Shown: in pieces, positions 15,056 through 27,885 of the stretch | Numbering within the stretch: the first letter of the stretch is position 1 | Layout: every line of letters starts with the position of its first letter | NCBI GenBank assembly: GCA_949524905.1 | Contig: CATINC010000013.1 | Coordinates: 1 to 64,000 of the forward strand | DNA length: 64,000 nt | Direction of reading: 5' to 3' | DNA from: Opitutia bacterium UBA7350 | Lineage (GTDB): Bacteria > Verrucomicrobiota > Verrucomicrobiia > Opitutales > Coraliomargaritaceae | Notes under the pieces: model-generated | The model's database searches: none | Seen by the model: only the letters and a program-made list of their open reading frames with translations | What the model was told of the DNA's origin: nothing | Program-made: the position numbers and the translations under genes

Positions 15056-15688
15056 CTAAGACTCCTTTTTAGACTCCGAATCTTCAGCCGCCTCGCTTGA
15101 TTCTGTTTCGGTTTCGGGAGCTTCAGCTTCTGGTCCGTCTTCGGGAGCCGCTTCCTCTGCTTCGGCTTTAGGCTCAGCTTCGGGGGCTTCTGCTTCCGGC
15201 GTTTCTGCCTCAGCATCAGACTCTAATTTTCCCTCTTTAGCTTTTGCTTTAGAAGTGGCTTTGGCTTTAGGAGCAGCTTTGCGTTTAGGCTTTTCGTAGC
15301 CCTCGTCAGAAGCATCAATCAGTTCGATGAGCGCCATTTCGGCAGCATCACCGATTCGTTGTCCTATTTTGTAGATCCGAGTGTAACCGCCTGGGCGTTG
15401 AGCAAATTCTGAGGCACGCTCATCAAAGAGCATTGCCACTGCTTTCTTATCGCGCACTCGTGCGACTGCAAGGCGACGGTAGTGGAGCTTGCGAGCCGCA
15501 TCATTTGCTTGATCTGCCTTTTTAGCGAGGGTGATAACCTTCTCAATAAAGGGGCGCAAAGCTTTGGCTTTGCTGAGGGTAGTTTCAATTCGTCCGTGGG
15601 TGATCAAAGCAACCGAGAGGTTACCCATCATTGCGGCGCGATGCGGGCCGGTGACCCCAAGGACGTGTCGTCTTTTACTGTGGCGCAT
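15056..15688 (-). CDS. rplQ: Ribosomal protein L17 with long acidic C-terminal tail
   Basis: Residues 1-127 are a standard L17 (MRHSKRRHVLGVTGPHRAAMMGNL; TRIYKIGQRIGDAAEMALIEL), a large-subunit protein at the exit-tunnel side. The usual bacterial protein ends near residue 125. Here it runs to 210: residues 131-154 are Lys/Ala-rich, like a histone-type tail, and 155-210 are almost wholly Glu, Ala, Pro, Ser and Thr. The tail is strongly acidic and low in complexity. It is the last gene of the ribosomal block, after rpoA, the usual order. Similar tails occur on other proteins of the block. Confidence 0.96.
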   Translation of the reverse strand: MRHSKRRHVLGVTGPHRAAMMGNLSVALITHGRIETTLSKAKALRPFIEKVITLAKKADQANDAARKLHYRRLAVARVRDKKAVAMLFDERASEFAQRPGGYTRIYKIGQRIGDAAEMALIELIDASDEGYEKPKRKAAPKAKATSKAKAKEGKLESDAEAETPEAEAPEAEPKAEAEEAAPEDGPEAEAPETETESSEAAEDSESKKES

Positions 15689-17466: not shown

Positions 17467-18069
17467 TTAGACACGACGACGTTTTGGAGCACGGCACCCA
17501 TTGTGAGGAACGGGGGTCACGTCGATGATCTCAGTGACAATCATGCCCATAGATTGAAGCGCGCGAACGGCGGAGTCGCGACCCATCCCGGGGCCGTTAA
17601 GTTTAACAACCACCTCTTTCATGCCGTGAGACATGGCAGTACGTCCGGCATCCTGCGTAACGACCTGTGCGGCGTATGCAGTGGATTTTCGGGAACCGCG
17701 GAAGTTACATTTACCAGCGCTGGACCAAGAGATGACATTACCGCGAGGGTCGGCAAAAGTCACCTTGGTGTTATTGAAAGTTGCGAGCACATTAACAACG
17801 CCAACGGTTATGTTTTTACTGCCTTTAGCGCGGCGAATCTTGACACCTTCAAGGTCGCTTTTAAGGAGATCTTCGGCGGTTTCTTCTTTTTTAGCAGGTG
17901 CTTCTTTAGCTTCAGCATCGGTAGCGTCTGCGTCTTTTGCGGGGACTTCCTCGGCTGCAGGTGCTGCTTCAGTTACCTTAGCCTGAGGTTTTTCTTCTGC
18001 GATGACCTCAGGAGCAGGTACTGCAGTTTCGTTCGTCTCTTCTTCGTTGGTTTCGTTCTCTTCGCTCAT
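17467..18069 (-). CDS. rpsK: Ribosomal protein S11 with acidic N-terminal extension
   Basis: S11 proper starts near residue 78 ([19 protein letters not shown]) and ends normally with [13 protein letters not shown], a platform protein of the 30S subunit. Ahead of it are about 75 residues of Glu, Ala, Thr, Pro and Lys with no hydrophobic core (for example [30 protein letters not shown]). This makes the protein 200 residues instead of about 130. No later start is convincing, because the extension stays in frame without stop and no other ATG or GTG lies near residue 75. It is the only tail in the block placed at the N-terminus. Confidence 0.95.
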
Positions 18070-19371: not shown

Positions 19372-20880
19372 TTAACCAAGGTTGATAAACCAAGAGAGAA
19401 TACCAAGAATGAAAAGGGTAAAGGCCAAGATCAGGAGCGGGCGCCATGCGGTCCAAAAATCCTGTATCCCGGTGGGATTAACCATTTGACGACTGTGGGT
19501 CGTGGAACGTCCACGGATTTTTCCTTTTTTAAGGAACCCGTCATAATGGCGCTGCAATAAATAGGTCTCGATCTGGCGCATGGTATCGAGGAGCACTCCA
19601 ACGGTAATTAGCATCCCGGTACCTCCGAAGAAAATAGCAATGCTGTTTGGGATTTTATACAGCACGAGCAGGATATCTGGGAATAATGCGATGAGAGTCA
19701 AAGCAAGGGCACCGGCGAGGGTGAGTCGCGTCATGATAAAATCAAGAAATTGCGCAGTGGGTTCACCTGGGCGCACACCGGGTATGTAACCACCGTTTTT
19801 CTTAAGGTCGTCAGCGATCTGAACGGGTTTGAACATCAAAGAAACCCAAAAATAACTGAAGATAAAAATCAGCAGAGCAAAGACAAAGTAGTAGGCAAAA
19901 TTTCCACGTCCAAAGGCATCGGCAAATTCGTTAAAGAAATTCATGCCGGTGTTTTTGCCGATGAAGTATAGAATCTGTGTCGGAAACATCAGAATAGCGC
20001 TGGCAAAAATGACGGGCATAACACCGGCGTAATTCACCTTTAGGGGCAAGAAGGAGCTTTGCCCGCCGTAGACTTTTCGACCCACGACGCGTTTGGCGTA
20101 TTGCACTGGAATTTTGCGCTGCGCCTGCGTGATGGCGACCAGCCCAGCGGTAACGATGAAAAGCAGTGCCAACATGAGCACACCTTGAGGAAGCCCAAGT
20201 TGTGCTTCGGCGCCAACTGGCGCGGTAAAAAGTTTGTAGGTCGCGATCACGGCTGCAGGTAAGCCTGAAATAATACTGACGGTAATGAGCAGTGAAATAC
20301 CATTACCGATGCCTTTTTGGGTAATCTGCTCACCGAGCCACACCATAATCATGGAACCAGCTGTGAGTAAAATAGTACCCATGATGAGGAATTGAGTTTT
20401 CCCCATTAGGACGATCTCACCATACTGCGCTGGATTAAATCCGGGAATAATACTGCCAGGATTTGTACTGAAAGCCACGAGCAACATCAGTCCCTGGACC
20501 AAGCATATTGCGATCGTCAGGTATCGAGTGTATTGATTGATCTTTTGTCGACCAACATCCCCTTCCTGCTGTAGGCGGGCAATCCCAGGAAAAACGGCAC
20601 CCATCAACTGCATGATAATGGAGGCGCTGATGTAGGGCATGATTCCGAGTGCAAAGAGTGCGCCGTTGAGCAACGCTCCCCCAGTAAACATATTGTACAA
20701 TCCGAGCAATCCGCCACCGGCGCCCGCTTCATTACTCAAGTATTCCTGAATCGGTGCGGGATTCATACCCGGAAGCGGTATATTCGCACCAACCCGAGCA
20801 ATGAAGAGTAAAGCCAGTGTGAAGAAAATCTTCTGGCGAAGCTCAGGAATCTTTAGGCAGTTTGTAAATGCGGAGAGCAT
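19372..20880 (-). CDS. secY: Protein translocase subunit SecY
   Basis: A 502-residue inner-membrane protein with about ten transmembrane helices, the channel of the Sec translocon. Recognisable blocks are RVGANIPLPGMN after helix 1, NMFTGGALLNGALFALGIMPYISASIIMQLM, the cytoplasmic loop QGGDV-type sequence LQQEGDVGRQKINQYTRYLT, and GNGISLLI. It is somewhat longer than the 430-450 residues common in the family; the extra length is mainly in loops. It is preceded by rplO and followed by map. Confidence 0.98.
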   Translation of the reverse strand: MLSAFTNCLKIPELRQKIFFTLALLFIARVGANIPLPGMNPAPIQEYLSNEAGAGGGLLGLYNMFTGGALLNGALFALGIMPYISASIIMQLMGAVFPGIARLQQEGDVGRQKINQYTRYLTIAICLVQGLMLLVAFSTNPGSIIPGFNPAQYGEIVLMGKTQFLIMGTILLTAGSMIMVWLGEQITQKGIGNGISLLITVSIISGLPAAVIATYKLFTAPVGAEAQLGLPQGVLMLALLFIVTAGLVAITQAQRKIPVQYAKRVVGRKVYGGQSSFLPLKVNYAGVMPVIFASAILMFPTQILYFIGKNTGMNFFNEFADAFGRGNFAYYFVFALLIFIFSYFWVSLMFKPVQIADDLKKNGGYIPGVRPGEPTAQFLDFIMTRLTLAGALALTLIALFPDILLVLYKIPNSIAIFFGGTGMLITVGVLLDTMRQIETYLLQRHYDGFLKKGKIRGRSTTHSRQMVNPTGIQDFWTAWRPLLILAFTLFILGILSWFINLG

Positions 20881-20923: not shown

Positions 20924-21484
20924 TTAAGCGTTTTCTGAAGCGTCTTCGGCATCCGCTGCTGGCGCTGAGTCTGTGTCTGCTTCTGCTTCGGCTCCGACTT
21001 CGGTCTTGGAAGCCCTTTCAGCTTCAGTTGCAGTTTCGGTCGCTACTGCGAGGATTACTTTTCCACCGACTGCCTCTATTTTCTTAATGGCAGATGCGGA
21101 GGCACGATCAACATGGACCGAGAGCTTTTTGGAAATTTCTCCATCACCAAGCAATTTTATGGCTTCGTCGTTATCGCGAATAAGTCCAGCTTTTAACAAG
21201 CAATCACGGTTAACAACATCGCCCTGAATTTTTTCCAGCTCGCCGACATTGACGGTCTGGAAATGCTTGCGGAAGTTAAAGTTGTTAAAACCACGGCGTG
21301 GGAGCTTGCGGTAGAGCGGCATTTGTCCGCCCTCAAAACCGACCGGGATACCACCGCCGGAGCGAGCCTTTTGACCCTTATGTCCTTTGCCAGAAGTTTT
21401 ACCGTGACCGCTACCCTCACCGCGCCCAAGGCGTTTGGTAGAGTGGGTTGCACCCTTAATGGTTGGAATTTTATCAAGTTTCAT
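20924..21484 (-). CDS. rplO: Ribosomal protein L15 with acidic C-terminal tail
   Basis: Residues 1-146 are a typical L15 (RLGRGEGSGHGKTSGKGHKGQKARSGG; MPLYRKLPRRGFNN), a large-subunit assembly protein. A further 40 residues (147-186) are made of Ala, Glu, Thr, Asp and Ser (for example VGAEAEADTDSAPAADAEDA). The tail resembles those on L17, L5 and S17. rpmD (L30), normally between rpsE and rplO, is absent: the gap to rpsE is only 14 bases. Confidence 0.96.
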   Translation of the reverse strand: MKLDKIPTIKGATHSTKRLGRGEGSGHGKTSGKGHKGQKARSGGGIPVGFEGGQMPLYRKLPRRGFNNFNFRKHFQTVNVGELEKIQGDVVNRDCLLKAGLIRDNDEAIKLLGDGEISKKLSVHVDRASASAIKKIEAVGGKVILAVATETATEAERASKTEVGAEAEADTDSAPAADAEDASENA

Positions 21485-23745: not shown

Positions 23746-24387
23746 TTATGCTTCGGTGGTTTCAGCAGGTGCTTCTTCAACCGCTTCTGGTTCGACTTCG
23801 GCTTCGGAAGCTTCCGCTTGATCTTCATCGGGGGTGGTATCTGAACTGGATTTACGGAAGGGCATCCCGAGGCAACTGAGCAGTTCGCGACCGTACTCAT
23901 CATTGCTTGCTGAGGTATTGATGCAGATATCCATGCCGATGATGGCGTTGGTACCATCGGCGCTGACTTCCGGGAAAATGGTATGGTCAGAAATACCGAG
24001 GGTGTAATTACCTTGCCCGTCAAGTTTTGCGGGAACGCCACGAAAATCTCGAATACAAGGGAGCGCAATCAGAATGAGACGCGCGAGGAAGTCATACATC
24101 GCACGACCACGGAGAGTAACCTTACAACCAATGGGCTGACCTTCGCGTAGTTTAAAGTTTGAAATACTGAGTTTTGCCTTGGTGGTGACTGGACGTTGAC
24201 CCGCGATCTTAGTGATCTCGTCATTCACATAAATGACATGGTTTTTGTCAGAAGTGGCACTGAATCCAGAATTAATGACGACCTTGCTAATTGCAGGTAC
24301 GACATGAGGATTCTTGAACCCGAATTTTTCCATCAATTCGGGAACGACTTTTTCAGTGTATTGTTTATGTAGGAGTGCTTGTTCCAT
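23746..24387 (-). CDS. rplE: Ribosomal protein L5 with acidic C-terminal tail
   Basis: Residues 1-178 form a normal L5 (GFKNPHVVPAISKVVINSG; VTLRGRAMYDFLARLI; the central-protuberance protein contacting 5S rRNA and P-site tRNA). The protein then runs 35 residues past the usual end with DEDQAEASEAEVEPEAVEEA-type sequence. The tail has no positive charge beyond its first residues and resembles the tails of L15, S17 and L17. Confidence 0.96.
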   Translation of the reverse strand: MEQALLHKQYTEKVVPELMEKFGFKNPHVVPAISKVVINSGFSATSDKNHVIYVNDEITKIAGQRPVTTKAKLSISNFKLREGQPIGCKVTLRGRAMYDFLARLILIALPCIRDFRGVPAKLDGQGNYTLGISDHTIFPEVSADGTNAIIGMDICINTSASNDEYGRELLSCLGMPFRKSSSDTTPDEDQAEASEAEVEPEAVEEAPAETTEA

Positions 24388-25099: not shown

Positions 25100-25507
25100 T
25101 TAGGCCTCAGAGATTTCGTCTTCGGCTTTGGCTTCGCTGTCACTGCTGGCTTCAATTGCTGAATCAGTTTCTGCAACCGTTTCATGGTTTGCCTCGCTTT
25201 CGATGATGGCATCGCTGTCGAGGTCAAGGTCGCCATCGAGCTTGGGTGCGCGTTCGAGCACGCGAGTCACACGCCAGCGCTTGAGTTTGCTGATGGGGCG
25301 AGTTTCCATAATTTCAACACGGTCACCAAGACCGCAGTCGTTGGCTTCGTCGTGCGCGTGAACTACGGTCTTACGTTTGATCTCCTTGCGATAAAGCGGG
25401 TGTGGGATCTTGTAGAAATAAGTAACCTTAATGGTTTTATCACCAGAGCGACTGGTGACAGTTCCAATGAGGGACTTGCGGGAGTTACGGGTGGCAGTTG
25501 CTTCCAT
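25100..25507 (-). CDS. rpsQ: Ribosomal protein S17 with acidic C-terminal tail
   Basis: S17 proper is residues 8-88 (KSLIGTVTSRSGDKTIKVTY; HDEANDCGLGDRVEIMETRPISKLKRWRV). Residues 90-135 form an extra tail with regularly spaced Asp and Glu (LDGDLDLDSDAIIESEAN, then SSDSEAKAEDEISEA) and no aromatic residue. Usual S17 length is about 80-90. The oligonucleotide-binding fold itself is complete, so the protein should function in 30S assembly. Confidence 0.95.
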   Translation of the reverse strand: MEATATRNSRKSLIGTVTSRSGDKTIKVTYFYKIPHPLYRKEIKRKTVVHAHDEANDCGLGDRVEIMETRPISKLKRWRVTRVLERAPKLDGDLDLDSDAIIESEANHETVAETDSAIEASSDSEAKAEDEISEA

Positions 25508-27220: not shown

Positions 27221-27231
27221 TTTGATGAGGG

Positions 27232-27603
27232 TTATGAGTTTTGAAAGGTTTTGATACGTGCGATGTCGCCGGGTTGGATGGTGGTCTCGCGAGCGATTTG
27301 AAGAATGAGAGCCGCAGCGCGATTTGGATGCGATGCAATGATAAGGACTTCAGCAACCAAACGGTTGTTACGTTCGATACAGCAAATCATACCTCGGCGC
27401 AAACCTTGAGATAAACCACCTTCAATAACAACGAGATCAGATTTTTCACCTGCTAAGACTTCGGCAACCGGTGCGGCATTGGCAACATAGAGGCCTTCTT
27501 TTACAAAGGATGGCTGTCCGTCTACCCCTAGGCATGGCAAAGCGGTCGCTGCAGCCATTAGGCCGGCTATTAGAGCTTTGCAAAACTGGGAACGGGATGA
27601 CAT
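27232..27603 (-). CDS. Small secreted protein of unknown function inside the S10 operon
   Basis: A 123-residue protein I cannot name. It starts with a clear Sec signal peptide (basic n-region SSRSQFCK, hydrophobic ALIAGLMAAATALPCLG, predicted cleavage near residue 26). The mature part has a predicted small beta-barrel pattern: VEGGLSQGLRRGMICCIER-like turn, VAEVLIIAS, AALILQIAR, then QPGDIARIKTF. This G-x-x-x-G ... PGD layout resembles outer-surface or flagellar-assembly C-terminal barrels, but that is only a resemblance. It lies on the same strand with gaps of 11 bases to rplV and 21 to rpsS, so it must be co-transcribed with them. Such an insertion is not part of the standard operon. Confidence 0.85.
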   Translation of the reverse strand: MSSRSQFCKALIAGLMAAATALPCLGVDGQPSFVKEGLYVANAAPVAEVLAGEKSDLVVIEGGLSQGLRRGMICCIERNNRLVAEVLIIASHPNRAAALILQIARETTIQPGDIARIKTFQNS

Positions 27604-27624
27604 TGGACGATAAGCCTCGAGAAT

Positions 27625-27885
27625 TTAGCTGCTCTGGTGAGATTTAAAGGTACGAGTAGGTGCGAACTCCCCGAGTTTGTGGCCTACCATATTTTCAGTG
27701 ACATACACGGGCAGGAAACTGCGGCCGTTATGAACATTGAAGTTAAGACCCACGAAATCAGGGGTGATGGTTGAGCGTCGTGACCAAGTCTGGATGGGCT
27801 TTCGGTCATTGCTGGCCTGAGCGGCATCCACTTTCTTGGCAAGATGGGGATCGACGAAGAATCCTTTTTTAACGGAACGTGACAT
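27625..27885 (-). CDS. rpsS: Ribosomal protein S19
   Basis: An 86-residue S19 of the 30S head. [41 protein letters not shown] and [18 protein letters not shown] are diagnostic. Length is slightly below the common 90-93 residues. It precedes the inserted secreted-protein gene. Confidence 0.97.

What the first reader, a model, noticed from the sequence alone, without database searches (positions are those of the whole stretch)
27232..27603. Gene for a secreted protein embedded between rpsS and rplV
The rpsS-rplV junction is among the most conserved gene adjacencies in bacteria. Here a 123-residue protein with a clear signal peptide and a small beta-barrel-like mature domain is inserted, same strand, gaps of 11 and 21 bases. 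It would be made in step with ribosome synthesis but exported. Its VEGG...GLRRGM...PGDIARI pattern hints at a periplasmic barrel, not a ribosomal function. No such component of the S10 operon is known to me.
Basis: partly seen in the sequence, partly recalled or inferred. Interest (0 to 1): 0.68.

Follow-up and report, generated by a model that had tools for sequence, protein, structure and literature searches.

The report
Exported protein gene fixed before rplV
Bacteria across the phylum Verrucomicrobiota carry, inside their main ribosomal-protein gene string and directly before the gene for ribosomal protein L22, a gene for a protein that appears to be exported from the cytoplasm, which suggests an undescribed link between making ribosomes and building the cell envelope.

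Summary
On the minus strand, 27232-27603 encodes 123 aa: an N-terminal export signal and a small beta-barrel (AlphaFold2 pLDDT 96-98 over most of residues 41-120 with a 77-row alignment). It lies 21 nt after rpsS and 11 nt before rplV. It is not a local oddity: 127 distinct homologous proteins were read at the same rpsS-rplV junction, in the window's family, order and class and in further groups of the phylum. Where the operon is broken after rpsS, the homologue heads the rplV-rpsC part (19 of the 20 loci read that hold rplV). The gene evolves under purifying selection (dN/dS about 0.15-0.25) and in step with the ribosomal proteins (matrix correlation 0.90). Most other groups have a longer form: signal/anchor, coiled coil, barrel; Opitutales have little more than signal plus barrel. 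The barrel is nearest to FlgT_C/TsaP-type domains by weak sequence matches. It is not MreC, not a ribosomal protein, and carries no arrest motif. Some lineages lack it, with an ordinary junction of 3-37 nt. Best reading: an envelope protein whose expression is wired to ribosomal-protein transcription; its biochemical role is inferred, not shown. The papers searched hold no description.

The parts
27232..27603 (-). CDS of the exported barrel protein ('X'), 123 aa
   Evidence: ORF; 127 distinct homologous proteins at the same junction; dN/dS 0.15-0.25
27523..27603 (-). N-terminal export signal, about residues 1-27 (n-region MSSRSQFCK, h-region ALIAGLMAAATAL)
   Evidence: hydropathy scan of the family; exact cleavage site not determined
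27244..27477 (-). beta-barrel domain, about residues 43-120, six predicted strands
   Evidence: AlphaFold2 with alignment A4, pLDDT 96-98 in most of this part; conserved G63, G71, R78, G112, D113
27604..27624 (-). rpsS-X intergenic, 21 nt
27221..27231 (-). X-rplV intergenic, 11 nt; no Shine-Dalgarno-like site seen before rplV
27625..27885 (-). rpsS (uS19)
   Evidence: Pfam PF00203
26885..27220 (-). rplV (uL22), the constant neighbour
   Evidence: Pfam PF00237; adjacency kept where rpsS is elsewhere

Best explanation
The gene encodes a periplasmic or membrane-attached protein of the cell envelope, probably ancestrally an N-terminal signal or anchor, a coiled coil and a C-terminal FlgT_C-type beta-barrel; the form in the window's order keeps little more than signal and barrel. 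It came to lie directly upstream of rplV before the groups of Verrucomicrobiota sampled here diverged, and has been inherited vertically there, so that it is transcribed with the ribosomal genes and its supply follows growth. I propose that it acts as a structural adaptor or scaffold in the growing envelope (the kind of work that MreC- and FlgT-type coiled-coil or barrel proteins do), so that envelope building keeps pace with ribosome synthesis. Shown here: gene, position, conservation, selection, predicted fold. Inferred: export, co-transcription, direction of size change. Proposed only: the scaffold role.
For: Homologues lie between rpsS and rplV in 29 of the first 30 loci (in the thirtieth the contig ends) and in many further groups. 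X is directly upstream of rplV-rpsC without rpsS in L163, L181, L182 and 16 of 20 further loci. Short and long forms are homologous (hhalign E 6.5e-18). 118 of 128 sequences have an 11-residue window with mean hydropathy over 1.8 in the first 45 residues. Purifying selection, stronger on the mature part. Co-inheritance: Mantel r 0.90, 0 of 999 permutations. Confident barrel model; FlgT_C is the most frequent weak Pfam match (14 of 77 members, best 1.6e-4), TsaP E 0.005 in the PDB sequence search, FlgT 3w1e among the Foldseek matches.
Against: No direct evidence of function, localisation or expression. Fold matches are generic: the best are F1-ATPase N-terminal barrels (Z about 10, rmsd about 2, 70 residues) and FlgT does not stand above them. 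Codon usage is at background level. Several lineages lack the gene, so it is dispensable there. No relation to MreC presence was seen.
Confidence: 0.5

Rival explanations
1. Cis-acting regulator: X is translated and exported co-translationally, and the state of its translation or export controls translation of rplV and the genes downstream, including secY, by coupling or stalling, in the manner of SecM.
For: X lies 0-97 nt (median 11) before rplV in intact operons and stays with rplV where the operon is broken. In the window's family no rplV start has a Shine-Dalgarno match of 4 or more bases, so coupling is possible. secY lies downstream in the same gene string.
Against: The conserved part is the folded barrel; the C-terminal tail is not conserved and RAPP/RAGP-type motifs are absent. 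rpsC and most X starts in that family also lack Shine-Dalgarno matches, so rplV is not special. Lineages without X have an ordinary junction.
Confidence: 0.14
2. Membrane-side ribosome factor: the hydrophobic N-terminus is an anchor and X works on ribosome assembly, or on ribosomes at the membrane, together with uL22.
For: Strict linkage to rplV and co-inheritance with ribosomal proteins; some members look anchored rather than cleaved (L157-L161, L174, L175).
Against: AxA-like sites after the hydrophobic segment in many members and lipobox-like motifs in a few; the mature window protein is nearly neutral (10 K/R, 9 D/E), unlike typical ribosome binders.
Confidence: 0.12
3. Passenger: an envelope gene inserted into the operon and merely retained, its position carrying no meaning.
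For: Some lineages lack the gene. Paralogues of the same plan exist elsewhere in other genomes.
Against: The adjacency persists across the phylum and is kept where the operon is broken.
Confidence: 0.12

Closest known systems
FlgT C-terminal domain (Pfam PF16538) and TsaP C-terminal domain
   Same: Small beta-barrel in exported proteins; weak but repeated profile matches (14 of 77 members, best 1.6e-4; TsaP E 0.005)
   Different: No FlgT N/M domains and no LysM domain; encoded in the S10 operon, not in a flagellar or pilus locus
MreC (Pfam PF04085)
   Same: Long forms share the plan anchor, coiled coil, beta-barrel; a few weak MreC hits
   Different: The window protein does not match MreC; a separate MreC gene is present in the own genome and in genomes with and without X
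secY within the spc operon
   Same: A gene for an envelope component inside a ribosomal-protein gene string (here at 19372-20880)
   Different: secY is near-universal and encodes the translocon; X was found here only in this phylum (others not searched) and is itself a likely export substrate
PVC signature protein (CT421.2 family, PMC3444138)
   Same: Uncharacterised protein with a distribution at phylum level or above
   Different: About 53 to over 80 aa and shared by the PVC phyla, per that paper; no link to the rpsS-rplV junction is given there
SecM/MifM/VemP and RAPP arrest peptides
   Same: Exported protein encoded immediately upstream of a gene it might regulate
   Different: No arrest motif, tail not conserved, neighbour is rplV rather than a Sec/YidC gene (PMC10987492)

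Membership tests
FlgT_C (PF16538) | Match to the Pfam model at its curated cut-off | tested here: inconclusive
   Window protein: no match at E 10; 14 of 77 relatives match weakly, best 1.6e-4; cut-off not shown for those rows
FlgT_C (PF16538) | Fold of the FlgT C-terminal domain | tested here: inconclusive
   FlgT 3w1e at Foldseek rank 10, E 4.6e-3, TMq 0.49, but F1-ATPase barrels rank above it
FlgT | Three-domain flagellar H-ring protein (domain layout) | tested here: not met
   X is 123 aa, signal plus one barrel; long forms have a coiled coil before the barrel
MreC (PF04085) | Match to the MreC model; being the genome's mreC gene | tested here: not met
   No match of the window protein; the genome's MreC is another gene, G000:C7:61594-62052
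SecM-like arrest peptide | Conserved C-terminal arrest sequence | tested here: not met
   Residues 119-123 carry the lowest information of the protein; no RAGP, PP in the last 25 residues in 1 of 128
SecM-like arrest peptide | Translational pause relieved by export | not testable with these tools
   Needs ribosome profiling or in vitro translation
Ribosomal protein | Match to a ribosomal-protein family | tested here: not met
   No Pfam family at E 10 and only one chance-level NCBIfam match for the window protein
Exported (Sec) protein | Signal peptide or anchor at the N-terminus | tested here: inconclusive
   Hydropathy scan: 118 of 128 over 1.8, K/R before the segment in most; no trained predictor and no experiment

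The most novel reading that the evidence does not exclude
Translation or export of X gates production of uL22, the downstream ribosomal proteins and SecY, so that Verrucomicrobiota throttle ribosome synthesis by envelope or secretion capacity: a phylum-wide growth-coupling switch built into the S10 operon.
Probability: 0.12. Interest if true: 0.92.

Novelty: new variant of a known kind. Interest (0 to 1): 0.73.

Why it matters
The S10 operon is among the most conserved gene strings in bacteria. A gene for an exported protein held beside rplV across a phylum, even where the operon is broken, points to selection for joint expression of ribosomes and an envelope component. How bacteria match envelope growth to ribosome synthesis is an open question, and here one gene can be deleted, moved or tagged in a genetically tractable, harmless species to test it.

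Tried and rejected
Single-sequence AlphaFold2 gave pLDDT 43 and was not used. The first genome-contig scan with the single protein found nothing, and A1 was too diverse for a scan; the closer alignment A2 found 25 named loci. MreC replacement rejected. Arrest peptide not supported. A special lack of a Shine-Dalgarno site at rplV rejected: rpsC shows the same. Neighbours of paralogues gave no clear hint; no family search was run on them. The PDB fold search points to no function: F1-ATPase barrels and FlgT. Papers: searches for the junction, for signature proteins and for V. spinosum essentiality found no description. Planctomycetota and Chlamydiota could not be searched with the handles available.

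Full report
What is there. The gene (called X here) runs on the minus strand from 27603 to 27232 and encodes 123 aa. rpsS ends 21 nt before it and rplV starts 11 nt after it; both are identified by Pfam. X itself matches no Pfam family and has only one chance-level NCBIfam match. It is single-copy in its 1.67 Mb genome. The rest of the S10-spc-alpha string looks ordinary by its products, with secY and map in their usual places (my reading of the ORFs).

The arrangement is not local. Within the order, 137 of 273 genomes match the single sequence at E 0.1. In 29 of the first 30 loci X lies between rpsS and rplV; in L003 the contig ends upstream of X. Named relatives are Coraliomargarita and Puniceicoccaceae or Opitutia genomes (lineage). 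The same order is seen on contigs of several megabases, which excludes a chimeric assembly as the cause.

It is phylum-wide. A profile search found longer homologues in the rest of the class. All seven first fetched, L082-L088, lie between rpsS and rplV, with gaps of 726-915 nt and proteins of 236-293 aa. Further groups of the phylum gave the same: L157-L162, L164-L171, L174-L176, L183-L185, L191 and L196. In total 160 loci gave 128 distinct ORFs in the junction; one of them, L218, is probably not a homologue, which leaves 127. Many of the 160 loci are one genome fetched by several searches, and all were found through a match to X or to rpsS, so these are not population frequencies. Some matches lie elsewhere: L172, L173, L177-L180, L186, L187, L189, L190 and L192-L194 hold neither rpsS nor rplV; those read in full are paralogues with anchor, coiled coil and a similar barrel.

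X belongs to rplV. In many genomes outside the class rplV is not within 1.5 kb of rpsS (L198-L201, L203, L206-L211 and others). In L199, read in full, no rplV follows. In such groups X heads the rplV-rpsC segment: L163, L181 and L182, and 16 of 20 further loci chosen from the profile matches, 18-168 nt before rplV. Of the other four, L235, L243 and L247 hold no rplV in the stretch read, and in L244 no ORF ends close upstream of rplV. Counting all 23 loci, 19 show the adjacency; of the 20 that hold rplV, 19 do.

Absence. Several families of the order have an ordinary junction of 3-37 nt (L033, L035, L037, L039-L041, L043, L045-L047, L049-L051; in L032 the genes overlap by one base), and so do L212, L220 and L223 outside the order (9-13 nt). 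L034, L038, L044 and L048 have 97-179 nt without an ORF. In the window's own family three of the four genomes without a match also lack a detectable rpsS, so the region is probably missing from those assemblies; the fourth, G271, has a divergent rpsS at 61% identity.

Selection and descent. dN/dS averages 0.19, 0.22, 0.25, 0.15 and 0.15 in five genus-level sets and is lower in the mature part in all five. X distances follow ribosomal-protein distances (Mantel r 0.899, 0 of 999 permutations, 125 loci), as expected of vertical descent.

Anatomy. An N-terminal hydrophobic segment is nearly universal: 118 of 128 over a mean hydropathy of 1.8. This is a simple scan, not a trained predictor. With a 77-row alignment AlphaFold2 gives an all-beta domain with pLDDT 96-98 over most of residues 41-120. 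Conserved residues are G63, G71, R78, G112 and D113. Short and long forms align over the barrel (hhalign E 6.5e-18). Weak sequence leads are FlgT_C, TsaP and MreC. Fold matches are F1-ATPase N-terminal barrels (Z about 10 over 70 residues) and FlgT; a shared small barrel shows no function.

How it may work. Gaps of 21 and 11 nt leave little room for a terminator or a promoter at the junctions, so co-transcription with rplV is very likely (inference). Codon adaptation of X (0.663) is near the background median (0.649) and below all 22 ribosomal-protein genes, so X is probably made in smaller amounts; the background was built from long ORFs without gene calling. The conserved part is a folded domain and the tail is free to vary, which speaks for a working protein rather than a regulatory nascent chain. 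I therefore favour an envelope adaptor whose supply follows ribosome synthesis. The scaffold role rests only on domain resemblance.

Literature. Full-text searches found no account of the arrangement. The PVC signature protein of PMC3444138 is a different, shorter protein. PMC12283558 reports 100 essential proteins of unknown function in V. spinosum; whether X is among them could not be read. The library holds open-licence papers only, so absence there is weak evidence of novelty.

Noticed in passing
15056-15688, 17467-18069, 20924-21484, 23746-24387, 25100-25507 (minus strand): Several ribosomal proteins (L17, S11, L15, L5 and S17 by position and sequence) carry Glu/Ala-rich acidic extensions at one end.
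   Followed up: no
L177 1637-2410, L178 1498-2325, L179, L180, L186, L192, L193: Paralogues outside the S10 operon with N-terminal anchor, coiled coil and a similar barrel; in L177 and L178 a second anchored ORF follows directly.
   Followed up: partly
L198-L201, L203, L206-L211, L214-L217, L221, L222, L224, L226: Outside the class, rplV is often not within the 1.5 kb read downstream of rpsS: the S10 string appears broken exactly where X sits elsewhere.
   Followed up: partly
G319 and G702: Two genomes that carry X have no MreC match at E 1e-5.
   Followed up: no
L034, L038, L044, L048: rpsS-rplV gaps of 97-179 nt without an ORF, possibly remnants of a lost X gene.
   Followed up: no
L204 and L218: Junction gaps of 313 and 552 nt with ORFs that do not look like X.
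   Followed up: no
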